From assembly GCA_009602725.1 (NCBI GenBank), contig WELB01000053.1, forward strand, positions 655,172 to 683,785: a DNA stretch of 28,614 bases, read 5' to 3'. The position numbers and the translations under genes were made by a program. The notes beneath the pieces were generated by a model, which was given only the letters and a program-made list of their open reading frames with translations, was not told the origin of the DNA and ran no database searches. Source of the stretch: Spirogloea muscicola (taxonomy: Eukaryota > Streptophyta > Zygnematophyceae > Spirogloeales > Spirogloeaceae). Shown piece after piece: positions 570-22,100 of the stretch. Numbering within the stretch: position 1 is the first letter of the stretch; each line of letters begins with the position of its first letter.

Positions 570-665
570 AAGGAGTGTGTATTGAGTGACGGATTCTGTC
601 GAATTTGGGGCTCCTCACTCGTACTTATCGAGTGGTTTCATCCTACACCAGTTCTGAGATAGAGA

Positions 666-731
666 GAAGGGATCGCCCATTGAGGATAGGGGCTGGAAAA
701 AGCCAGCCCAGAAAAGAATGTACAAAGGACG
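666..731 (-). repeat. Retrotransposon 3'-tail unit (hairpin), minus orientation
   Basis: On the plus strand this reads GATCGCCCATTGAGGATAGG, then GGCTGGAAAAAGCCAGCC and an AAGAATGTACAAAGGAC box. The same blocks occur at 9305-9440 and 13483-13617, where they lie downstream of, or next to, element coding sequence on the minus strand. The inverted repeat GGCTGG...CCAGCC with a five-A loop is an exact hairpin. Only the distal part of the tail is kept here. Confidence 0.75.
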
Positions 732-740
732 GGAATACGC

Positions 741-3166: not shown

Positions 3167-7312
<4,146 letters not shown>

Positions 7313-8580: not shown

Positions 8581-9208
8581 GTTTAACGATAGATCCATCC
8601 ACTTCAGCACCTACTATAAGAGAAAGCACGGGTGCACGTTCAGTGAAAGGGAGTCAAAGAACGCCAGTACACTACTTGTAATAGAATAGAGAATGATGTA
8701 AGAGGGGCAAAGTAACAGAATGAGAATTACAACTGAACGAGGACTTTGGTACCCACGCGTGAGCACATACACATGTGACAGAAAACGCGGGGAGCCGGAG
8801 CACCACCACTCAAGTCAGTGGCCAGGCTTAGTGCGCATCCAGCATGCTGATGTATGGCTAGAGCCTGGGACCACGGCATACTAAGTGAGAGCCGCATTCT
8901 GTGATGAGCAACCAATGCTGGCGGGACGCTGGGGAGGGAAATGACGGCGCCATGCTGCTGGATGGGAGTGTGGCGCCCTGATCAGTCTGTCAGACGTTTG
9001 TCTCAATCGTGGCTATTAGAAGGAAGACTCTTGCAGTAGAGGGCGAGGACTAGAAACCCCCTCCAGTTTGCACTTCTTCGCTCTGTTACCTTAGCCCCTT
9101 CAGAAACGTCTTTGTTCTTCTCGTCACAGAGAGTGCACTGGCTTGGTTTGGCCTCCCTCGCATCTTCAGGCCCCTTCGTAGCTGCTTAGCGCTTCAGGCC
9201 CCTCCGTC
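8581..9208. other. Spacer, no gene seen
   Basis: No supported coding sequence. On the minus strand near 8744-8775 a short VLTRGY-like peptide resembles the element C-terminus (LLTRGY), which may be a further decayed 3' end, but the match is too short to call. Confidence 0.45.
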
Positions 9209-9296
9209 GTTTGGCCCATTCGAACCTTAGTCAATTCTTTTCGGGGGTGGCTTTTCACAGCCCTTGCCCCCATTGGGAGACCCACTTCTTTTTCTC
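9209..9296 (+). repeat. Retrotransposon tail unit, plus orientation
   Basis: GGCCCATTCGAACCTTAGTC, AATTCTTTTCGGGGGTGGC and TTTTCACAGCCCTTGCCCC match 781-840, and the following CCCACTTCTTTTTC resembles 845-860. The unit abuts a minus-oriented tail at 9305, forming an inverted pair. Confidence 0.65.
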
Positions 9297-9304
9297 AATG
9301 GAAG

Positions 9305-9440
9305 ATGAAGGGCTCGCCCATTGAGGATAGGGGCTGGAGAAAGCCAGCCCAAGAAAGAATGAACAAAGGACGAGAAGGGGCCAGGGGAAGTACGAAATTC
9401 AACAAGCACAAAATGAAATGAAGCAGCTACGAAGCACTCA
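9305..9440 (-). repeat. Retrotransposon 3'-tail unit, long form A
   Basis: Read on the minus strand it begins near a TGA-like position (ACTGAGTGCTTCGTAGCTGC), passes CCCCTGGCCCCTTCTCGTCC, TTTGTTCATTC, then GGGCTGG-CTTTCT-CCAGCCCC and TATCCTCAATGGGCGAGCCC. It is nearly identical to 13483-13617 and similar to 13340-13478. No element coding sequence precedes it here, so it is a tail-only copy. Confidence 0.8.
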
Positions 9441-9762
9441 GTGGAAGATAGACTCTTCCAGCAGAGGGCGATGGCCGTGATTGACCAGCCCTGAGGAAGG
9501 GTGGACTCTCAAATCATGCGCACCGCGCGCACGTTCGTCTTGGCCGTTCCTGCAGGGAGAGCAGAGGCGGTGGGCCTGGTGTGAAGCGGGAAAAGCCACC
9601 TCAGGAATCTCTGCTCGACAGTGTGAACGGTCCGCCGAAGCCAGCGGCCCAGCAGCCCGCCGCACGGTTCGGCGCGGTGGGCGACGTCGCCTGGCGGCCT
9701 TCTCGCCCCAAACGGCCAGCCTCGGGGCATTGAGGCCACGTGGCGCCTCGCCACCTGCTCGA
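9441..9762. other. GC-rich stretch, no gene seen
   Basis: Open frames exist on both strands but show no conserved domain and are Arg/Ala/Pro-rich as expected by base composition. It lies between two retrotransposon tails and may be displaced element sequence too decayed to recognise. Confidence 0.45.
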
Positions 9763-9876
9763 AAGAAGAGCAAGCGCGGCCAGATTAACTGGTGGCTGGG
9801 AGAGGCCAGCCCAAAAGAATGGACAAGGTCTGAAGGAGTCGGAGTGCTAAGGACTGAGACAGCAGTAAGCGAACTC
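9763..9876 (-). repeat. 3' untranslated tail (form C) of the large retrotransposon copy
   Basis: Directly downstream (minus strand) of the stop at 9877. It carries GACCTTGTCCATTCTTTTGG, then GGCTGGCCTCTCCCAGCC and a terminal TTAATCTGGCCGCGCTTGCT. An inverted, nearly identical copy of about 65 bases lies at 13727-13797 on the other strand. Confidence 0.75.
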
Positions 9877-12400
9877 TCAGTAACCTCTCGTCAGTAGATG
9901 CAAATCTGAGTAGCTAGCAGGCGGAAAGACGTCGCCCTGACGGAAGCCGGAGGCCGCCGCCAGAGCGCGGCCTGCGCGCAAGTGGACCGCAAAAGCTAGG
10001 GACCGCTGCAACGAGACGGCCAGGCGCATCCGGTAAACTTGGGCGAGGGACCCGGCAACATGGAAGCCAGGCTGCTCGCCTTGCTGCCCGTCGCGGCGGG
10101 CCGCTGCTCGCCGCGCAAGGCGGTGAAGGAGGTCCAGCCATTTGGCGCCAAAGGTGCCGTGTACGTCGACGGCGAGTGGGATAAACTCGTCGCCTACCGG
10201 GTGATCTGAGTACTTGCGCTCCTTTGCGGCGGCCGCTTGGCGGACGGCGTAGCCCGCCTCCTTCGCCGAGCGTGTTGCGCTCCTGGAATCCAAGGAGTCC
10301 GTTGTGACGACGTCGGCAATGAGCCGAGGCCCTTCGCCGAGCGCGCTAGCGACGAGATCGGCGCGCCGGGTGTGGAGGCGGCCGTCCGCCCCAGCAGTTA
10401 GAGGCATGATGCTGGAGTTCTCCAGCGCCACAGTGTAACCGGCTTTGACAAATATGCCAAACATCGCGTTCCGGAGCAGGTCGTGTGTGCCGGTCCGCTC
10501 CCCTCCCCGTGCGCATCGGAGCATGTGAGCTGCCAGTGACGCCGCGTCCGGGCTGCGCTCGCCGCACTCGCACTGTTGTACTCCACCTAGGCATGGTGGG
10601 TGGAGGCCGAGGAGGCGGTGCACCGCCGTTCGGAATGCGGCGTCCGGCATCCGGAGCGCGTCGTGGATCGGCAGAGCCGACAGCCAAGCAGCCGCCCCTG
10701 GTGAGGACGCCGAGAGCAGTCGCGCGCGCCCCCGGAGGTCGGCTGGAGGCAAAAGCCCCAGCGCCGTGGAGAAAGACGCCGCATCTACCTCCGCCATGCA
10801 GCGAGCTTGGGCCCGCAGGTCGGCCGTGCGCGCGAGGTGAGCGAACGGGACGGCCCGTGGCACCAGGGCGGGNNNNNNNNNNNNNNNNNNNNNNNNNNNN
10901 NNNNNNNNNNNNNNNNNNNNNNNNNNNNNNNNNNNNNNNNNNNNNNNNNNNNNNNNNNNNNNNNNNNNNNNNNNNNNNNNNNNNNNNNNNNNNNNNNNNN
11001 NNNNNNNNNNNNNNNNNNNNNNNNNNNNNNNNNNNNNNNNNNNNNNNNNNNNNNNNNNNNNNNNNNNNNNNNNNNNNNNNNNNNNNNNNNNNNNNNNNNN
11101 NNNNNNNNNNNNNNNNNNNNNNNNNNNNNNNNNNNNNNNNNNNNNNNNNNNNNNNNNNNNNNNNNNNNNNNNNNNNNNNNNNNNNNNNNNNNNNNNNNNN
11201 NNGAGGAGGGCTGGCAACCCTTGTGGGGACCAGGCGCTGCACTTCGACGCTCGGATGTCCAGGCCGATCTCCTTCAGCTGCTCCTCGAGCGTGGCGAAGG
11301 CAGCCAAGACCTCGTCTGGTTGCCCGACCAGGGAGGTGTCGTCGGCATACGTTGGCATGAGGACGCCCGGGTGAGCAGCTGCCGTGGCCTTCAGGGCGCG
11401 GTCGTGGGCCAGCGCGTAGAAAACCCCGCCAGCGGGTCACCCTGACGCGTGCCCGTGGAAGACTGAAGGACCTCCACCCCGCCGGCTCCATGCCGCCAAA
11501 GGAGATCACTGGGCTGGCCGTAGCCCAGCCGAAAGAACGGCAGCAGGGTGGGGAAGGCCGCACGGAGCTCCTCGGCGACTGTGGCGCGGTCGACGCAGTT
11601 AAAGGCATTGCGGACGTCCACCGCCAGCACGACCCACTCGGGGTGCAAGTCGAGGGAAGCCCGCACCCCGTGGACAACCGCCTCGCCGCCGCTCCGCAGG
11701 CCGGCGCCGTACTGGTGTGGCGCCAGGTGTGTCTGGGCCGCATCGGCGTGCTGTTGCTGAAGTGCCCTACCCACCAGGCGGTACAGGACCTCGCCGATGG
11801 CAATGGGGCGGACGCCGCCGTTGACCTTGCTGAGGGCCAGCAGGGTACTGGCACAGAGCACACCGCGGATGCTGGCAGGGACGTGATCCCGGGCCATGTG
11901 TTGGCACACCTGGTGCAGCACCCGAAAGTCAGCCTCGTCCCCCTCGAGAAAGAGCTCTCTCAAATGCTCCGTAACCATGCGTGAGGGGCCACCTGCAGCT
12001 GCGCGCCGGCTGCTCTGCAGGGCCTTGCGGAGGGCTGCCGCATCCAGGGCCACCTCCTCCGGCGGGACGTAGGAAGCCAACCACGAAGGCAAGGGAGAGC
12101 GTGCCGGGGGGTGGAGGGACGAGAGGGCTTGCCGCGTGTCCTCAGTCGCCGGCGCCAACGCCGAATCATCCAGTGCCTGGACTGCTCTCGAGAGCTCCCC
12201 GGCATGGCCATACCGGAGAGCGCGGCGGACACTGGCCACCCTGTCAGGCGATGGCCCTGTCTGCGAAGTGCGGCGGCCGGCTGTGGCTGCAGCCACTGCA
12301 GCGTCATGCCGCGCCAGAAGCTCCTCCCATCGCCCACACTGAAAGAGGTAGATGCGGTCCAGGAGCAACTGACGGCCTTGGCCGTGGCCCTGGGGGGGTG
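9877..12400 (-). pseudogene. RLE-class non-LTR retrotransposon ORF (RT + zinc finger + endonuclease), 5'-truncated and frameshifted
   Basis: The minus strand encodes a reverse transcriptase: GGVRPIAIGEVLYRLV, AVDVRNAFNCVD, STGTRQGDPLAG and the catalytic YADD near 11340-11352. After the thumb (largely lost in the N gap) comes a CxCG...H...C finger near 10511-10577, then a PD-(D/E)XK-like block: RRADLV, 11 residues, LIADVVTTD, and a downstream AKERKYSDH. That order (RT, CCHC-type finger, RLE with a lysine/KY motif) is that of R2/NeSL/Hero-type elements; no APE endonuclease is seen. A single-base loss in a T run near 11419-11423 breaks the frame between GDPLAGF and ALAHDRALK. The N-terminal part is missing: sequence begins mid-protein (LLDRIYLFQCGRWEELLARH) right after the hairpin tail of the next copy. 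The protein ends SYSDLHLLTRGY and stop. Decayed and unlikely to be active as assembled. Confidence 0.88.
10873..11202. other. Assembly gap (330 N)
   Basis: An unbroken run of N lies between the YADD region and the thumb/finger region of the retrotransposon. Its length is a multiple of three, but the true size is unknown. Repeats on both sides probably caused it. Confidence 0.98.
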
Positions 12401-12537
12401 CTCGCCCATACAGAATGAGGGGCTGGCAAAGCCAGCCCTAAAAAGAATGGACAATGTCCAAAGCCAAAGGAAAAGGAGCCGGAAAAAGGACTACACCACA
12501 AAACACTACAAAACACGCAGTTGATGCAGAGGGAAGC
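12401..12537 (-). repeat. 3' untranslated tail (form B) of the second retrotransposon copy
   Basis: It follows the stop of the 12538-13330 copy. Minus strand: GCTTCCCTCTGCATC..., CCGGCTCCTTTTCCTTTGGC, TTTGGACATTGTCCATTC, then a perfect hairpin GGGCTGG-CTTTG-CCAGCCC and CATTCTGTATGGGCGAGC. The next bases already encode the truncated start of the large copy, so the tail end is the insertion junction. Confidence 0.82.
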
Positions 12538-13330
12538 TCAGTACCCACGAGTGAGCAACATCAGGTCTGAGTAGCTCGCTGCAGGGAAAGAGGCACTCCG
12601 CCGAGACCCAGAGGCGGCGGCCATAGCACGGCCTGCTCGCGTGTGGACGGCGTGGGCAAGGGAAGCGTTGAAGCGGTACCGCCAGGCGCATGCGGAAGAC
12701 TTGGGCGAGCGAACCGGGCGGCATTGAAGCCGGGCATCGCCCCTGGCAGACCCGGCCGCCGGTCAATGGCCTGGCGGGCAAGCCGCTGAAGGAGATCCAG
12801 CCAGCGGCTGCCGAAAGCCCCGTGTACATTCATCGCCAAGGCCGCGAATTCATTAACAACCGGGTGATCAGCATGTTTTCGCTCCTTTCCCCGGGCCGCC
12901 AGGCCGACCGCGTGCCTTGCAAACGACGCCGATCTGGTGAATTTGGCGTAGTCGAAGCAGTCAGTTGTCACCACATCGGCGATGATGCGGGGACCGCCGC
13001 CGGGCGGGATGGCGACCAGGTCGGCGCGTCGTGTTTGGGGCTGGCCGTCCGCGCCCAGCTGGATGGGCATTATTGAGGAGTTCTCCACAGCCACCTTGAA
13101 GCCTCCGTAAACACCCCCTGCATATCATCTCGCAGGAGATCGTGGGAAGCGGTCCACTCGCCCCCGTGCGTGCAACGGAGCATATGCGCAGCCAGCTCTT
13201 CTGAGTCAGCGTGACGGGCACCGCACTCGCACTGAGTGACGCCCACGAGGCGGGGAGGAGGCCCAAGAGCCGGTGGACCGCAGTCCTGAAGACCTCATCG
13301 GGCATGGTGAGCGCCGCGTGGAGAGGGAGC
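12538..13330 (-). pseudogene. Second RT-RLE retrotransposon copy, 3' third only
   Basis: The fragment begins at SALPLHAALTMPDEVFRTAVHRLLGLLP (SALPIHDALRMPDAAFRTAVHRLLGL in the large copy). After frame breaks it continues through the finger region and then ENSSIMPIQLGADGQPQTRR, ADLV, RIIADVVTTD, GKERKHADH and VHGAFGSRWLDLLQRLAR. Another shift follows, and it ends SDLMLLTRGY with stop TGA at 12538-12540. At least three frame changes are present. The endonuclease acidic residues are kept, which allows them to be recognised as conserved between copies. Confidence 0.85.
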
Positions 13331-13339
13331 GCTGATAAG

Positions 13340-13478
13340 GAAGGAAGGGCTCGCCCATTGAGGGATAGGGGCTGGAAAAGCCAGCTCAAAACAGAATGAA
13401 CAAAGTACGAGAAGGGGGCCAGGGGAAGCGCTAAGAACAACAAGCACAACAAGAAACAAAGCAGCTACGTATTATTCA
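13340..13478 (-). repeat. Tail-only unit (form A), tandem to the next
   Basis: On the minus strand it starts at CTGAATAATACGTAGCTGC, corresponding to the stop codon region of a full copy, and runs through CCCCTGGCCCCCTTCTCGT, TTTGTTCATTC, GAGCTGG-CTTTT-CCAGCCCC and CCCTCAATGGGCGAGCCC. The coding fragment of the second copy begins directly after it. It lies in direct tandem with 13483-13617. Confidence 0.78.
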
Positions 13479-13482
13479 GTAG

Positions 13483-13617
13483 AGAGAAGGGCTCGCCCAT
13501 TGAGGATAGGGGCTGGAAAAAGCCAGCCCAGAGAAGAATGTACAAAGGACGAGAAGGGGCCAGGGGAAGTACGAAGAACAACAAGCACAGAAAAGAAGCG
13601 AAGCAGCTACGAAGCAC
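13483..13617 (-). repeat. 3' untranslated tail (form A) of the 13618-13700 fragment
   Basis: The tail follows the LLSRGY stop at 13618. It holds GTGCTTCGTAGCTGCTTCGC, CCCCTGGCCCCTTCTCGTCC, TTTGTACATTC, GGGCTGG-CTTTTT-CCAGCCC and TATCCTCAATGGGCGAGCCC. Identity with 9305-9440 is about 90 percent by eye. Confidence 0.82.
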
Positions 13618-13700
13618 TCAGTAACCCCTGCTAAGCAGCTTCAGGTCAGAGAAGCTAGGCTCCTGGAAGTGGGTCCCCTGGCCAGAGGAAGAGGCAGCAG
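13618..13700 (-). pseudogene. C-terminal end fragment of an RT-RLE retrotransposon
   Basis: The minus strand encodes RALTAASSSGQGTHFQEPSF and SDLKLLSRGY-stop, matching RALAAASGFRQGDVFPPASY and SDLHLLTRGY-stop of the large copy. Only the last 27-30 residues remain. It is joined upstream to an inverted tail. Confidence 0.8.
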
Positions 13701-13797
13701 TGAGGGCTCTGCTGTCCTGCTGACCTTGTCCATTCTTTTGGGCTGGCCTCTCCCAGCAACCGGTTAATCTGGCCGCGCTTGCTCTGCTGATAACCAC
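13701..13797 (+). repeat. Inverted tail unit (form C), plus orientation
   Basis: The plus strand reads TGACCTTGTCCATTCTTTTG, then GGCTGGCCTCTCCCAGCAAC and TTAATCTGGCCGCGCTTGCT. This is the inverse of 9763-9833, the tail of the large copy. The two lie about 3.9 kb apart and bracket most of the minus-oriented array. Confidence 0.8.
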
Positions 13798-13815
13798 GCC
13801 TCTGCTGATAACCAC
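13781..13815. repeat. 17-18-nt tandem duplication
   Basis: GCTCTGCTGATAACCAC at 13781-13797 is followed by GCCTCTGCTGATAACCAC at 13798-13815. It lies at the outer edge of the inverted tail unit, so it may be a target-site duplication or a simple slippage product. Confidence 0.7.
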
Positions 13816-13893
13816 ACCGCCGCCCCTGGGGAAGAGGCTGAGAGGAGCCGGGCGCGGCCACGAAGGTCAGACGGAAGTGAGAAGCTCCACCAC
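13816..13893 (-). pseudogene. Internal fragment of an RT-RLE retrotransposon
   Basis: The minus strand encodes SDLRGRARLLSASSPGAAVW and LSA, matching ADLRGRARLLSASSPGAAAW and LSA of the large copy (between the thumb and the finger). It is bounded by a form B tail on its 5' side and by the 17-nt duplication and inverted tail on its 3' side. Confidence 0.75.
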
Positions 13894-13904
13894 CTGGTCA
13901 GAAG

Positions 13905-14000
13905 AAGTGCGCGCCCATAGAGAAGAGGGGCTGGCAAAGCCAGCCCAAAAAGGAATGGACAATGTCCAAAGCCAAAGAAAGAGGAGCCGGAGAAAGCGGT
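13905..14000 (-). repeat. Retrotransposon tail unit (form B)
   Basis: Minus strand: CCGGCTCCTCTTTCTTTGGC, TTTGGACATTGTCCATTCC, GGGCTGG-CTTTG-CCAGCCC, then CTTCTCTATGGGCGCGCAC. Nearly identical to the distal part of 12401-12537. The coding fragment 13816-13893 begins right after it. Confidence 0.8.
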
Positions 14001-14506
14001 CAGAGGCCGCTTTTTCAACCAGCGCCGTGGGCACGCGGGTGAGGGGTGTGGGCGAGGTGGGGTAAAAGGGACAATCCGCTCCGACATCTTGGGGTGGACC
14101 GCCAGGAGCCCGTCGCGGGCACAGCAGAGGGCAACCTGGAAAGGCAGCTGGCCGATCTCCACTTCAGCTGCCGCCCGCTCCACGGCGCGCTGGCCGTGGC
14201 GGCCGTCGAGAAGTCGCCAGCTGGCGTATCCAGATAGGTGCCTACCTGCTTACTCGACACGCGGCAGCAATGATCTCTGCCAGCTGGCGGTATGCCAGGG
14301 GGCTGCCGACTGTACGGAAAGGTGGGGCGGGCGGGGTTTGTCCGCTAGCGGCGGGGACTGCGGATCCATCAGACTTAGCTAGCGGGGCAGCGAGCAGCGC
14401 AAGGTGCCGCTTCCTCGACATCTTCCGGGTAGTCACAGGACCGGGCCCATAGGGCTGCCAGCCGCGGCCGACCGCCCTAGGCGTCTCCACAGCCCGAGGG
14501 CGGCGT

Positions 14507-14538
<32 letters not shown>
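14001..14538. other. Upstream region of the GRAS gene
   Basis: No separate gene is supported. The stretch holds the likely promoter and 5' untranslated region of the GRAS gene, and it ends in a (GGC)n run at 14502-14537. In-frame stops in the GRAS frame (TAG at 14430) show that the first exon does not extend far upstream. Confidence 0.5.
14502..14537. repeat. (GGC)n trinucleotide run
   Basis: A run of about 11 GGC units lies just before the proposed GRAS start. Further GGC-rich runs at about 14904-14945 and 15103-15131 encode polyglycine inside exon 1. Such runs are prone to slippage and assembly errors. Confidence 0.85.
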
Positions 14539-14539
<1 letters not shown>

Positions 14540-17186
14540 TGGCCATGCTGGATCGGCGCCGGCGCGGTGGTACCGATGGCGGCGGCGGCGGCAGCGGCNG
14601 CGGTCGCCGAGGCCGCCGTCACCGCCGGCTGTCGGCCATGGCGGCAGCGGCGGCCAGAGCGGCTGCGACAGCTGCGGGCAGTCCGACGAGGACGCGAGGC
14701 CGCCGCCGCCGTTTGACGGCTTGGCCGCCGCCGCGACGGCCGCCGCGGCGGACGGCAGCTCGCTCCACGGCGTCGACCACAGTGGCGGCAGCGGCGCCAG
14801 CGAGCTGGTGGCTGTTGAGGCCGAGGCCAGCGACTACGGCGAGACGCCGAGCTGGTGGCAGCTAGACATCGCGCCGCTGCTCGAGTGCTGCCTGGAAGGC
14901 GGAGGCGGCGACGGCGGCGGCGGCGGCGACGGCGGCGGCAGCGGCAATGGCAACTACGTGGCCTCGTCGGGCGACCTGAGGGCCTCCTCGCCGGACTCGT
15001 CATCCCTAGCCAGCGGCCCGCACGACAGCGCCATGTCCTCGGCCGCCATTGTGGAGGACCATTCGCTGGACCTCGTACCGATGGCCGCAGTCTCGCTTGC
15101 GGGCGGCGGCGGCGGCGGCGGCGGCGGCGGCCTGGAAGACCTCCCGGGGCTGCCTGCCGGCGCCGGCCTTTCCAGGCCGCAGGCCTGGCTGTCCGCCGGC
15201 GGCGCCGCCGTCGGTGGGGCTGTCGTGGCTTTCGACCAGCCTTCTGCGACTGGCCATGAGGACGCCGCCGAGCGCTTTCTGCCGGCAACGCCATGGCAGC
15301 TGCGGCACCAGCCGGTCTTCCACCTCGACAGCTTCTTCCTGCCGACCGGCAGCCAGGCCACGGCCGCCGCCGAGGCCGCCGGCGCGACTGGCCGGCGCAG
15401 CCGCGGCCTGCAGCTGCGCAGCCAGCTCGTGGCCTTCGCCGAGGCAATCGCGACCGACGACTGGCAGCGCGCCAAGTTCCTGCTCAGCCTCCTCAAGCGC
15501 GAGGCGCAGCCCAGCGGCGACGCCTCGCAGCGCACCGCCTACCTCTTTGTCGAGGCGCTCAAGGAGCGCATCGGCTTTGGCGAGGGCTCGGCGCTCATCG
15601 CCGCCGGCAGCGGCCCAAGGCCGCCGCCCAAGGAGCTCGGCGCCGCCATCGGCGCCGTCTGCGACGCGCTGCCGTTCGTGCGCTTCGCCCACATGTCCGC
15701 CGGCGTGGCCATGCTGGATGCATTGCGCTCCGACCGTTACGTGCACATCCTCGACCTCTCGTCTTGGCAGGTAGGCGCGAGGCACCCGCCTCGAGTCTTG
15801 GCCAGGATCTCAGACTTTCAACGGTAACTGTAACAGTCAATTACTGTGACAGTTTAGCTATCAGAGTGTGTCAAAGGGGACCGACACTATTTGGTGTGAC
15901 CTGCGCAGGGCGGGCAATGGGAGTCGGTGATTCGCGCGTTTGCCGCGAGGCCGCAGGGCCCGCCACGGCTGCGCATCACGGTGCTGCCATGCAGCCCCGA
16001 CGCCAACTTCAACAAGCCGCCTCGCATGGCATACGAGGAGATGCAGCGCCAGCTGTCGCTGCTCGCCGCCTCGCTGGCAGTGCCATTCGAGTACCGCATC
16101 CTCGGCGGCGCGCTCGAGGACCTGCGTCCCGAGACGCTGGCGCTCGAGCCCGGCGAGGCGCTGGCTGTCAATGCCGTCATCCGCCTGCACACGGTGCCGG
16201 ATGAGAAAGTGCTGCACTCGAACCCACGTGCCAAGGTCCTACGACTTCTGCGGTCCCTCAACCCTACCATCTTGGTTGTGGTTGAGAAGCACAGCAATGG
16301 CAGCAGCCCATTCTTCCTCCAGCGCTTCCAGCAGGTCACACCACTAGCCCTATGTGCACCTGTAAGCTTGTTGACTAGCATACACAAGTGACGGTTTGCA
16401 GTTATGGCAGTCAAGCTGTCGTGAAGCTGACCGCTCTAGCACGCAAGTTTTGTTTAATTTGTAATCCTCTTTCACCAATTGCCTGCCCCAAAGCTTGGCA
16501 ACTTGGTTCCACCTGACTGCAACTCACAGCAACACTGAGCTGCCCACCCACGCACCACGTGTCCTGCAGTCCCTTGACGCCATGCAGGTGGTCATGGCGG
16601 CAGTCGACTCATTTATGCCACGCACGAGCAAGGACCGGTACGTGTTTGAGAAGCATGCGCTGGGCGCGGAGATCATGAACCTGGTGGCGTATGAGGGCCT
16701 CCAACGCACGCGGCGGACCGAGTATCTGCCCAAGTGGCAGAGCCGCCTGCGTGAGAGCGGCTTTTGCAGCAGGTGGAAGTCTTATTCTGGCCTCTTGGCA
16801 TATATATGTCATTTGTCTAACCAGCAGGAGCCCCTCCGTATCCTCTTCAATAAGCCTGTCAATGATGCATACCACGACGCATCCACTTACGAAGCAGGCA
16901 CCATGCATTCCATGCAACTCCCCTTATTCTCAAATATAGCTTGTGAATGGCTGCTTGTGATCATGGTAGCAAGGGTCCAGCAATCTGTTGTATACAATCA
17001 AGGAAGCTGATAATCCGCAAGCGCACGGCGTGGTGCAGGCCATTTTCCCCGGCGGCACTGAGGGAGGTGAAAGCATTGGTGGAGCAGTTCACGGGCACAG
17101 AAGTGAAGGACCAGGGCGGCGCACTCATGCTGTCCTACAAGGACTTCCCCATCATGCACGCCACTGCGTGGCAGCCTGCATTCTGA
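14539..17186 (+). CDS. GRAS-domain transcription regulator, 4 exons
   Basis: Exons: 14539-15770, 15909-16361, 16570-16772, 17039-17186, phases 0, 0 and 2; about 678 aa. GRAS proteins are plant nuclear regulators that work through partner proteins. Seen: a glycine-rich disordered N-terminus; a leucine-heptad region (LVAFAEAIATDDWQRAKFLL, SAGVAMLDAL); the VHIID motif as VHILDLSSWQ; PRLRIT; the PFYRE-type block FEYRILGGALEDLRP with LAVNAVIRLH; LNPTILVVVEKHSNGSSPFF; KHALGAEIMNLVAYEG; and a C-terminal SAW motif (FPIMHATAWQPAF). The exon 2 donor at 16362 (GTAAGC) is preferred over 16335 because it keeps the usual spacing to SLDA. The start is uncertain: ATG 14539 has a good context but lies in frame 1, while all conserved sequence is in frame 3, and an N sits between them at 14599. 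One missing base there would reconcile them. The subfamily is not assigned. Confidence 0.9.
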
Positions 17187-19197: not shown

Positions 19198-22100
19198 CTA
19201 TGCCAACCTCTCTGGCCAATTTTCATCGTTCCATGTTCTTGCAAGTTGCCAAGCTAGCTGCCAGCCCTCAGTATTGCTGGTGGCACCTCTACTTCTACAA
19301 CCCAGAACATGGTGGACAAGCTCTCGCTCCCTGTCACTGAGGCTCCTATGCACTTGCAGTGATCTTCCATCGAGCACCTCGCTAAGGCACTCGCCATCAA
19401 CACCAACGGTGCGTGCAGATGCAGACCGAGATGCCTCCCCCTCCTTCAGCTCGAGCTCTGCAGCCCGCAAGGCCGCCCTGCAGATGACAGACTCAGGCAT
19501 GCCTGCACACATTCTTTCAGAATTATGAGTTCCTTGCCAAGAGACGAATGAAGACACCTCCAAATGCACATGCTCTTTGCACAGACACAACGCAATTTGC
19601 ACTTGACCCTGATATTGAGGTCAGGTCCATGCTGTTGCTGCATCGTTCCCACTTAATCAAGGGCTTGAGAAGCAAACTCAAACTGAAAGGGGATAAATGG
19701 TGGTAACAACATTAGCTCTTGAGACAACCAACCAATTGTGTCAAGGACATCATACTACGTACTGAGGATGAGGCAGAGGCAAGCCAAGGAATGGAGATTC
19801 AGGAGAAGGGGCACTTAAGGATCTTGGCTTAGGCTGACGGCTGCTTTGGTATGTAGACGACTGCTTTGGTATGTAGGGGTTTGGTATGTGTGGTCAGGGT
19901 CTGGGGCCAAGGCTTACCAGCAAGTCGAGCAACATTGATACCGTAGCTCTTGGGACAGGCTCCATCGGCCAGCTTGTACAAGAATGTGACCTCTGGGGCA
20001 CTACTGCTGACATGACCTTCACCAGAGTCGCGAACCTTGCACGCCATATGATACAGCCCGACCTGGAGGTTGCAGAAAAGCCATTTGAGGGTTTGCATGA
20101 AGGCCCATCTAGTGCTGTTTTGGTTGCAGTGGAAGGGCATCTGGATGAGAAGATGGAAGTCCAAGTAGGACTAGGTCCACTCATGACGGTGCCTTAGCTT
20201 GTTAACATACTTAAACTTGCATACAAAATTCTGAAGCTGCTATACGTCAAGCCTAAGTCAGTTGATACCTTGGGGTCGTCCGAGTGGTCGTCGGCCAGTC
20301 GATGGTAGTGCGTGGAAAAGAGCCCGAGGCACTGTGTCTCGTGCGCCAGATAGTGCAGCACAGCGTGGCTGTCGACAAGCAGTCGAGGTCACACACGAAG
20401 AAGCGAGCCTGAAGCTGTCAGAATGACATCAATTATCGAGAGTACAAGCCCTCCTTGCCTTTCACCTAATCGGGAGAATAAGTGCAGCTGATAAACATTG
20501 TGGAGGACCAACTTTGAGGCAAGGCCGGCTGGACACGAGGCAACATTCCAGCTTGTACAGATGCTTGTTTAGAGTATTTGAGAGCTTGATTTAGGCAATA
20601 TTAGGCATCTGCAAAAGTCACCCAGCTTCCACTTTGCCACGAGAGTGAGGACTTCAGCACCCTCCTAGCGAGCGGGCATAAGCGGAACTCACGCAATCGC
20701 CTGCCCATCCGACGTCGCCGTACCTCGGCCTAGCTCGTCCAGAGCTACCAGGGACCTCGCTGTGGCATTCCTCTGCTCAAACACAGGCCCGTATCGTCAG
20801 CGCCCCTTCCATTGCTGGACTTGTCTCCTGACCCTCTTCTTCCCAAGCCCACACCAAGCTGTAAATAAATTAGGTGTGGCTTTTGTATGGGTTTGGACAC
20901 TTGATTCAGTGTAGATAGTGTAATGTAAGTCTGTTTACCAGCATTGTGGCAGTCTCTGAGAGTTCCAAGAGGAAGGTGGACTGGCCGGCCATGATGTGAT
21001 CCTTGGCCCCCATGCGCACAAAGAGGCGGTCCACCGGGGTGAAACGAAACGACTCAGCCGGGACGTCTGCTCCAACCTTCACAGTAGAAACTCATGTCCA
21101 GTCCTTGTCACTGACATTGTAAAGCTTAGACAGCAGATTGAGAACCAATGAAGTACAGATCATGTGCACCCAGTCAACGTCTCTTGACTACAAGCTGCCA
21201 GTTGTAGGACACCTGCAGCTTGGTCTAGCCTGACCCTTTGCAACCATGTACTACATCAGGCTAGTAGTAGTGTGATATTGAGGAGTACCCCTACATCTAT
21301 TGCTTCTCCACACTGCTAAGACCTCAAAACCTACACCAGATCGATTTATGTTCCCGCTAGTTCACGTCTTTGAGCCAAGCCGACGATGAAGGGAGTTTGA
21401 TGCAAGCCTAGAACCTGGGCCATCACAACGGCGAGGCAGAGCTGCCGCAGCAACGTAGACTTCCCGCCCATGTTGGGACCAGTCAGGAGCATAAAGTGGG
21501 GGCGGCACCCCAGCTCCTCATCTACAGCTCCCCCCAGGAACGTGTCGTTTGGCACGAACGAGCCGCCGCCGGCCAGGCCGCCGCCCAGGACAGGGTGGCG
21601 CAGGCGCTCGGCATGGAGCTGCTGCTGACCCTGGCCGGTGGGGTTGGCAATGACAGTCGGCCGGCACATTGGCCTTTCCGAGTAGGCGCTCACCAGCGCC
21701 AGGCTGCTCAGTACGTCCAACTCTGGTGAGCACCAAGAGACCCTCTTCGTGAGTACCTCCGAGCCATAACAGCAGCAAGAAGGTGCAAAGTATGGTGTCA
21801 TGGCCTGCAGCTTTATGGGCTCATAGGACTCTAATATACATTACTATGTCTTAAGTAGGATCATTAGGCTTGAATAGGCTTGAATATTACCAGCGACGCA
21901 GCTGGCCAAGGATGTCCACTTGTCCATCTCCACTGCAAACGCGGCTCGCAGGCGAGCCAAGATGCCGCCCAGCGCCTCTTTCCTCTGCTGCTCGAAATCG
22001 CCCAGCTCAAGCAGCAGCTCCTTGATCTCCGGCGTCCAGTAACGCTTGTACCCCTACAAGACGCGCGAGCTCGAAGCCATCAATGAGCAAATGGATGAGA

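What the first reader, a model, noticed from the sequence alone, without database searches (positions are those of the whole stretch)
9763..14000. Head-to-tail nest of an endonuclease-bearing retrotransposon that appears to insert at its own 3' tails
Seen: on the minus strand the order is tail B / fragment DLRGRARLL / inverted tail / C-terminal fragment + tail A / tail A / copy 2 + tail B / copy 1 + tail C. In three cases a 5'-truncated coding segment starts directly after the ATGGGCG(A/C)GC end of the preceding hairpin tail, although each truncation point in the ORF is different. Known: RLE-class elements such as R2 cut specific targets, and nested self-insertion has been reported for the unrelated Zepp LINE of green algae. 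Inference: the preferred target here may be the family's own terminus, giving self-assembling arrays.
Basis: partly seen in the sequence, partly recalled or inferred. Interest (0 to 1): 0.78.

Follow-up and report, generated by a model that had tools for sequence, protein, structure and literature searches.

The report
Interrupted LINE nest, mostly misread joints
A stretch that looked like jumping-gene copies inserting at their own tails is mostly one older copy broken up by later insertions, plus one pair of copies that probably arrived together, in a genome littered with thousands of short copies of the same kind of element.

Summary
The pieces are real, but the order was misread. An uninterrupted relative (L160) shows that "fragment DLRGRARLL" and "copy 2" are parts of ONE element, 14198-12400 on the minus strand. 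It is interrupted by an ~88-bp tail copy (target duplication TCTGACC) and by a two-copy A-A insertion (TTATCAGC), itself split by an inverted copy (GCTCTGCTG). So two of the three "coding segment starts right after a tail" joints are broken hosts. Only copy 1 starts at a tail end. The A-A pair is a direct fusion inside one target duplication.

Genome-wide, the 26-base tail end occurs 7,589 times. Same-strand fusions are over-represented locally (14 in an 18-bp window, about 1.2 expected). Of 26 such contacts in 91 sampled loci I read 11 as interrupted hosts, 4 as inside one outer target duplication (one low-complexity), 2 as separate later insertions; 9 are unresolved. Resolved insertions prefer CTT (10/33 against 2.1%) but not own tails significantly (4/33 against 6.6%, p=0.17).

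Best reading: several LINE families with a probable restriction-like endonuclease insert into one another at a short pyrimidine motif that their own tails also carry; template jumping adds head-to-tail dimers. Both processes are known.

The parts
12400..14198 (-).
   Evidence: aligns in order to L160 4410-4579, 4614-4703, 4709-5639 at 81-86% identity; the joined frame reads through in register with copy 1
13903..13997 (-). Tail-B micro-copy (about 88 bp) inserted into H; target duplication TCTGACC at 14004-13998 and 13902-13896
   Evidence: 98% to L152 5487-5571; 7-bp duplication
13339..13785 (-). A-A dimer inserted into H: copy ending in tail 13498-13491 fused directly to a second copy ending in tail 13356-13349; one outer target duplication TTATCAGC (13793-13786, also at 13811, and 13338-13331)
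   Evidence: outer duplication 8 bp; none of 5 bp or more for the first copy alone; only CCTTC for the second copy alone
13715..13780 (+). Opposite-strand tail-C copy inserted at the 5' edge of the A-A dimer; target duplication GCTCTGCTG (from 13706 and from 13781 on the + strand)
9774..12407 (-). Copy 1: 5'-truncated LINE copy with RT and C-terminal zinc-finger/RLE-like region, tail C at 9783-9774; inserted at the end of H's tail (its first bases overlap that tail); 330 N at 10873-11202
   Evidence: 98.8-99.1% to L132; target duplication CGAGCA 12404/9761, 6 bp; overlap of GGGCG(A/T)GCAC at the 5' joint
9877..10872 (-). C-terminal 331 aa of copy 1: CxCx12HxxxC finger, then RRADLV..DVVTTD..KERK (RLE-like motif, assigned by eye)
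   Evidence: motif conserved in a second window copy and in L155, L160 and L132 with small changes; fold prediction uninformative, pLDDT 36

Best explanation
The region is a nest built by several related LINE families of the R2-like kind (N-terminal Cys/His fingers, RT, CCHC finger and a probable restriction-like endonuclease in one ORF, about 1,270-1,420 aa in the long copies chosen). Shown: an older copy H (14198-12400) was hit by a tail micro-copy and by an A-A dimer, the dimer was hit by an inverted copy, and copy 1 landed at the end of H's tail. Shown: 96 of 100 sampled copies lose homology to the others within 1 kb of the tail, some after a few tens of bases, and resolved insertions make target duplications that favour sites beginning CTT. 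Inferred: the 3' end of the RNA (..CUUUCUUC) pairs with the nicked target, so pyrimidine sites, including the hairpin loop and CT-rich end of the families' own tails, are used, and dense nests follow from copy number plus motif. Inferred: some direct head-to-tail fusions, including the A-A pair here, arise in one target-primed event in which the RT ends prematurely on one RNA and jumps to the 3' end of another.
For: Host reconstruction against L160/L161 and reading frame across the split. Truncation. Target duplications of 8 bp or more in 33 of 100 sampled copies against 4.1% in mismatched pairs (so about 4 of the 33 may be chance). CTT at the start of 10 of 33 duplications against 2.1% background; C at position 1 in 24 of 33; G/C before it in 29 of 33. 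Same-strand complete-tail neighbour at a gap of -2 to 16 bp: 14, against about 1.2 expected from the 12 found at 25-200 bp (236 tails, 91 loci; Poisson 7e-11). Single outer duplication around fused pairs: L048 TGTTGTGCGCAG, L056 CCTCTACTGGAAGC, L042 CATCGATC, L092 TTGCAAGGG, L111 GTCCCCAGGC, window TTATCAGC. Recent activity: the 10 long copies that I picked for large open frames have stop-to-stop frames of 1,271-1,418 aa, and two are 99.93% identical over 4,284 bp. Precedent for template jumping: PMC11371274 and PMC2104539 (passages).
Against: In the 34 usable tandem pairs an outer duplication of 8 bp or more is found in 21% against 8.5% null, but copy-1-alone gives 35% against 11% and copy-2-alone 41% against 24%: a mixture, not a clean template-jump signal. 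9 of 26 sampled contacts are unresolved, and one of the four outer cases (L005) is low-complexity. Of the 14 contacts counted, one (L026) I later read as an interrupted host and 8 are unresolved. CT-rich joints make short inner duplications hard to exclude. Opposite-strand tail-to-tail pairs are also over-represented (35 against about 2.3 expected under uniformity; 8 at 16-40 bp), which template jumping does not explain. The two A tails in the window are only 86% identical, so a joint origin needs two different source RNAs.
Confidence: 0.7

Rival explanations
1. Terminus-targeted self-insertion: the enzyme prefers the family's own 3' terminus, so each insertion regenerates the target and arrays assemble themselves.
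For: Copy 1 sits at H's tail end. Same-strand fusions exceed local expectation. Some copies are inserted just after tails or in tail loops with duplications (L022, L036, L050; L094, L108, L127).
Against: Two of the three supporting joints in the window are interrupted hosts. 4 of 33 resolved sites in tail zones against 6.6% expected locally, p=0.17. Few fused joints show an inner duplication that carries unique flank sequence (L100, L129, L056). The preferred motif CTT is general.
Confidence: 0.15
2. Re-use of the same target: the duplication made by one insertion is hit again, as in tandem R1 arrays, so neighbours share the target rather than recognise the tail.
For: L100 (CTCTACCAG three times around two copies) and L056 (CTCTACTGGAA around a second micro-copy). 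Tandem R1 copies separated by the 14-bp target duplication are described in PMC2718515 (passages). It might also bear on the excess of opposite-strand tail pairs, which I did not test.
Against: Only these two clear cases were seen; most direct fusions show no unique duplicated sequence between the copies.
Confidence: 0.25
3. Assembly artefact: separate loci collapsed or joined.
For: 330 N and two single N in the window.
Against: The three insertions into H or into the dimer have matching target duplications of 7-9 bp at the expected place (copy 1: 6 bp; H's own not established), and the host reads on across the insertions. Similar nests occur in the sampled loci.
Confidence: 0.04

Closest known systems
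R2-type / restriction-like-endonuclease LINEs
   Same: One ORF with N-terminal Cys/His fingers, RT, C-terminal CCHC-like finger and PD-(D/E)XK-like motif (motifs by eye); best, though weak, PDB sequence hits of the RT are R2 proteins (E 0.026, 0.054, 0.071); 5' truncation; template jumping known for R2 RT in vitro (PMC11371274, passages)
   Different: Dispersed over many sites with only a short CTT-leaning motif; target duplications mostly 8-12 bp; finger spacing CxCx12HxxxC; RLE fold not confirmed here
Tandem R1 arrays of Drosophila (PMC2718515)
   Same: Neighbouring copies formed by re-insertion into the target duplication; resembles L100 and L056
   Different: R1 uses a 28S site; here target re-use was seen in two cases
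Template-switch chimeras of Magnaporthe LINE MGL (PMC2104539)
   Same: Copies of different RNAs fused directly and flanked by one target duplication (14 bp for the tripartite element)
   Different: Here both partners are tails or 3' ends of sister LINE families rather than a separate noncoding RNA
Zepp nested clusters of Coccomyxa (PMC3446292)
   Same: Copies of one LINE nested in one another
   Different: Zepp is reported as one cluster per chromosome; here 7,589 tail ends were counted genome-wide and the 100 listed are spread along C1-C4

Membership tests
RLE-bearing (R2-like) LINE | reverse transcriptase domain | tested here: met
   Pfam RVT_1 E 1.5e-14 (L132), 2.4e-13 (L160), 8.4e-16 (L155), above cut-off; in the window copy only 6.5e-6, below cut-off
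RLE-bearing (R2-like) LINE | restriction-like endonuclease domain at the C terminus | tested here: inconclusive
   conserved RRADLV..DVVTTD motif (motif recalled), but no PDB sequence hit for this region and the model was useless, pLDDT 36
RLE-bearing (R2-like) LINE | no APE endonuclease | tested here: met
   no APE family listed at E<=1 in two frames of 1,350 and 1,406 aa (the program's filters drop most weak matches)
RLE-bearing (R2-like) LINE | N-terminal zinc finger(s) | tested here: inconclusive
   C2H2-type hits only below cut-off (E 0.097-0.4, L155; none for L160); Cys/His pattern by eye in L155, L160 and L133
R2 proper | insertion at a fixed 28S rRNA site | tested here: not met
   33 resolved insertions in 30 dispersed loci with varied target duplications
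Zepp | one nested cluster per chromosome | tested here: inconclusive
   listed tails are dispersed along C1-C4 (listing, 100 of 7,589); no chromosome map
Template-switch chimera | directly fused copies inside one target duplication | tested here: met
   window A-A pair, L048, L056, L092, L111, L042; most other fused pairs could not be resolved
Terminus-targeting element | insertions enriched at its own terminus beyond motif and density | tested here: not met
   4 of 33 against 6.6% and 8.0% expected, p 0.17 and 0.27; small sample, a modest excess is not excluded

The most novel reading that the evidence does not exclude
The 3' end of these RNAs works twice: as the priming end that pairs with CTT targets and as the landing site for RT that has stopped early on another RNA. 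Multi-copy head-to-tail insertions would then be a regular product of one retrotransposition event rather than a rarity, and because every product ends in a new CTT-rich tail, nests grow faster than copy number alone predicts.
Probability: 0.22. Interest if true: 0.6.

Novelty: new member of a known kind. Interest (0 to 1): 0.4.

Why it matters
It corrects a parse that would have been taken as evidence for self-targeting. It also gives a measured picture of how nests of an abundant LINE group with recent copies form: short target motif, extreme 5' truncation, occasional multi-copy insertions. If the multi-copy insertions are confirmed, this genome would be a natural data set for template jumping by such enzymes in vivo.

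Tried and rejected
Automatic 5'-junction finding by all-against-all homology was tried first. One search gave 19 of 384 junctions with a same-strand tail within 25 bp against 6-11 of 384 at shifted positions and 9 of 384 for the opposite strand, but misplaced junctions in arrays shared between loci, so I replaced it by reference-based segmentation. That set also contained loci chosen for tandem or convergent pairs and is not used for enrichment.

Uniform-density expectations (about 4.6 tandem and 2.3 convergent pairs, my arithmetic) against 58 and 35 observed were set aside as the main test because copies cluster strongly. The tandem pattern also only admits very short second copies.

The comparison of same-strand with convergent complete-tail neighbours at gaps below 16 bp (14 against 0) is not fair on its own, because two facing tails bring two CT runs; convergent pairs do appear at 16-40 bp (8). 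I therefore rely on the comparison with 25-200 bp. Part of the 44 against 9 count for any segment rests on short CT-rich matches.

A first motif-share count put 3.1% of bases, 10.0% of CTT and 6.7% of (G/C)CTT sites in tail zones; with local windows replaced it.

I first took CAGGTGG (13896/9757) as the target duplication of the fragment. One search showed that the element continues upstream, so this was dropped.

Fold prediction of the RLE-like region was too poor to search with. Rfam found nothing at gathering scores in 9000-15000. PDB sequence searches gave at best E 0.026. Eighteen of the 35 convergent pairs were fetched: 6 of 18 have a repeat of 10 bp or more on one side (L140's is CT-rich), and in L134, L150 and L151 the repeat takes in letters of the other copy's tail; no shuffled control was run on these and they were not resolved further. 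Outer duplications in L126 and L131 seen were not found at the first copy's edge and are not counted.
Full report
What was checked. The window lies in an unnamed 153-Mb genome (C53:655172-683785). A GRAS domain at 14721-15827 suggests a streptophyte or green-lineage host; that is an inference from recalled distribution, not a test.

Observation. Their arrangement means something else. Against L160, one of ten long relatives fetched from the same genome, the window aligns as 14198-14028 = 4410-4579, 13902-13812 = 4614-4703 and 13338/13333-12400 = 4704/4709-5639; L161 gives the same picture. These are pieces of one element H ending in the tail at 12400. The tail ending at 13909 belongs to a copy of about 88 bp inserted into H (duplication TCTGACC), and the two A tails belong to an insertion into H (duplication TTATCAGC). 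Joining the halves around the A-A insertion restores the frame LPSDLRGRARLLSASSPGAAVWLSALPLHAALTMPDEVFRTAVHRLL, parallel to copy 1. The inverted tail is a separate opposite-strand copy (duplication GCTCTGCTG). Hence of the three reported joints between a tail and a truncated coding segment, two are places where a host resumes after an insertion. H's own target duplication was not established.

Real contacts in the window. (a) Copy 1 begins in the end of H's tail. The tail's GGGCGAGCAC overlaps the element's own GGGCGTGCAC (seen in L132 and L133), so the 5' joint was probably made by annealing of short matching sequence, and the target duplication is short (CGAGCA). (b) Tail A at 13491 runs directly into a second A copy at about 13481. 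There is one 8-bp duplication around the pair, none of 5 bp or more around the first copy alone, and only CCTTC for the second. The two A tails are 86% identical.

Abundance. The tail end occurs 7,589 times within 2 mismatches, reversed control 0; its last 14 bases occur 6,752 times exactly, reversed control 1. RT-coding sequence gave 1,469 first-look candidates, of which 150 were scored and 150 matches listed. I fetched the first 100 listed exact-match places (contigs C1-C4, merged to 91 loci), so the sample leans to younger A-type tails. Their surroundings are dense with fragments; the window and all loci fetched by then together hold 443 tail motifs of at least four types, reversed control 4 (segments). 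In 96 of 100 sampled copies homology to the others ends within 1 kb of the tail, and in 15 within 51 bases. The ten long copies were picked for their large open frames; all ten have one stop-to-stop frame of 1,271-1,418 aa.

Target. In 100 sampled copies the longest match between the 5' edge and the sequence after the tail is 8 bp or more in 33%, against 4.1% for mismatched pairs, so about four of the 33 may be chance. The 33 duplications start with CTT in 10 cases (background 2.1%) and with C in 24; the base before is G or C in 29. The first C may be inflated because tails themselves add C and T. After removing each insertion in silico, 4 of 33 sites fell in the zone from 45 bp before to 14 bp after another same-strand tail, with 6.6% expected from the surrounding 800 bp (p=0.17) and 8.0% at (G/C)CT sites (p=0.27); for opposite-strand zones 0 of 33 against 4.2%. 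One of the four (L056, CTTTCTTC) is low-complexity and is better explained by its 14-bp outer duplication.

Contacts genome-wide. In 91 loci with 236 tails, after removing recognised host continuations (43), the next same-strand segment lies within -2 to 16 bp in 44 cases and the next opposite-strand segment in 9; beyond 25 bp the numbers are 51 and 56. Some of the 44 are short CT-rich matches; the stricter count, neighbours with a complete tail, is 14, against about 1.2 expected from the 12 at 25-200 bp (Poisson 7e-11). Of these 14 I later read one as an interrupted host (L026), four as having an outer duplication, one as a separate later insertion (L050), and eight are unresolved. Convergent complete-tail neighbours number 0 below 16 bp but 8 at 16-40 bp, so ends of tails are crowded in both orientations.

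Reading the contacts. I read the 26 same-strand contacts listed (no continuation filter) one by one. Eleven are later insertions into an older element whose sequence resumes (L003, L022 twice, L026, L027, L041, L042, L065, L067, L080, L091); 9 of these 11 show a duplication of 6 bp or more, L041 and L080 do not. Four have a single outer duplication (L048 12 bp, L056 14 bp, L042 8 bp, L005 8 bp but low-complexity). Two show a duplication for the downstream copy alone (L050, CT-rich, and L056 second joint, where the same target was used again). Nine are unresolved. In a second set chosen for tandem micro-copies (58 in the genome; 41 pairs in 40 fetched regions; 34 usable) the outer test gives 21% against 8.5% null at 8 bp or more, copy-1-alone 35% against 11%, and copy-2-alone 41% against 24%. 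Several copy-1-alone cases are insertions into the hairpin loop of an older tail (L094, L108, L114, L127). Clear outer cases there are L092 and L111.

Mechanism. Shown: nested insertion, target duplications, a CTT-leaning target, extreme 5' truncation, fused pairs inside one duplication. Inferred: the RNA end ..CUUUCUUC pairs with the nicked target, so pyrimidine sites, among them the loop (GGCTTTTTCC) and the end of the families' own tails, are used; and some pairs come from RT jumping to a second RNA. [quoted passage not shown] Directly fused LINE chimeras with a common duplication are in PMC2104539 (passages); tandem R1 copies by re-insertion into the duplication in PMC2718515 (passages); Zepp nests in PMC3446292 (passages).

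Family. RT is clear. No APE domain was listed. The weak PDB hits are R2 proteins (E 0.026, 0.054, 0.071), with unrelated proteins at similar E-values in the same list; the longer L160 frame gave none at E<=1. The restriction-like endonuclease rests on a conserved motif seen by eye; the model failed. So 'R2-like RLE LINE' is likely but not proven. The A tail folds better than its shuffles (z -4.3), the B tail moderately (z -1.9), the C tail does not (z -0.4).

Novelty. The processes are known; the families are presumably undescribed members of a known kind.

Noticed in passing
L024, L044, L075 and L100: Extremely short retrocopies, about 20-40 nt of tail; L024, L044 and L100 have target duplications of 9-11 bp, none was found near the edge of L075. 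15 of 100 sampled copies align over 51 bases or fewer, as if RT often stops at or near the tail hairpin.
   Followed up: partly
L152-L161: Ten long copies picked for large open frames have stop-to-stop frames of 1,271-1,418 aa; L160 and L161 are 99.93% identical over 4,284 bp, so the group has been active recently.
   Followed up: partly
L152 from 1116 and L157 from 1148: Two copies share the same A-type 3' end plus extra sequence upstream of where the other copies of the family begin, while their outer flanks differ, as if a fused unit had been transcribed and copied as one.
   Followed up: no
window 12407 and L132 about 3453: Two separate copies, 98.8% identical, are 5'-truncated within about 10 bases of each other (at GGGCG(A/T)GCAC), which may be a strong RT stop.
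   Followed up: no
35 places genome-wide, 18 fetched, e.g. L134, L150, L151: Tails facing each other with 16-46 bases between them are about 15 times more frequent than a uniform spread predicts; in three of the 18, the repeat at the second copy includes letters of the first copy's tail.
   Followed up: partly
window 660-735, 1139-1402 and 9307-9442: Further fragments and tails of the same families outside the finding.
   Followed up: no
window 14721-15827 (+) and 21346-21801 (-): GRAS-domain and MutS domain V coding segments, hinting at a green-lineage host.
   Followed up: no
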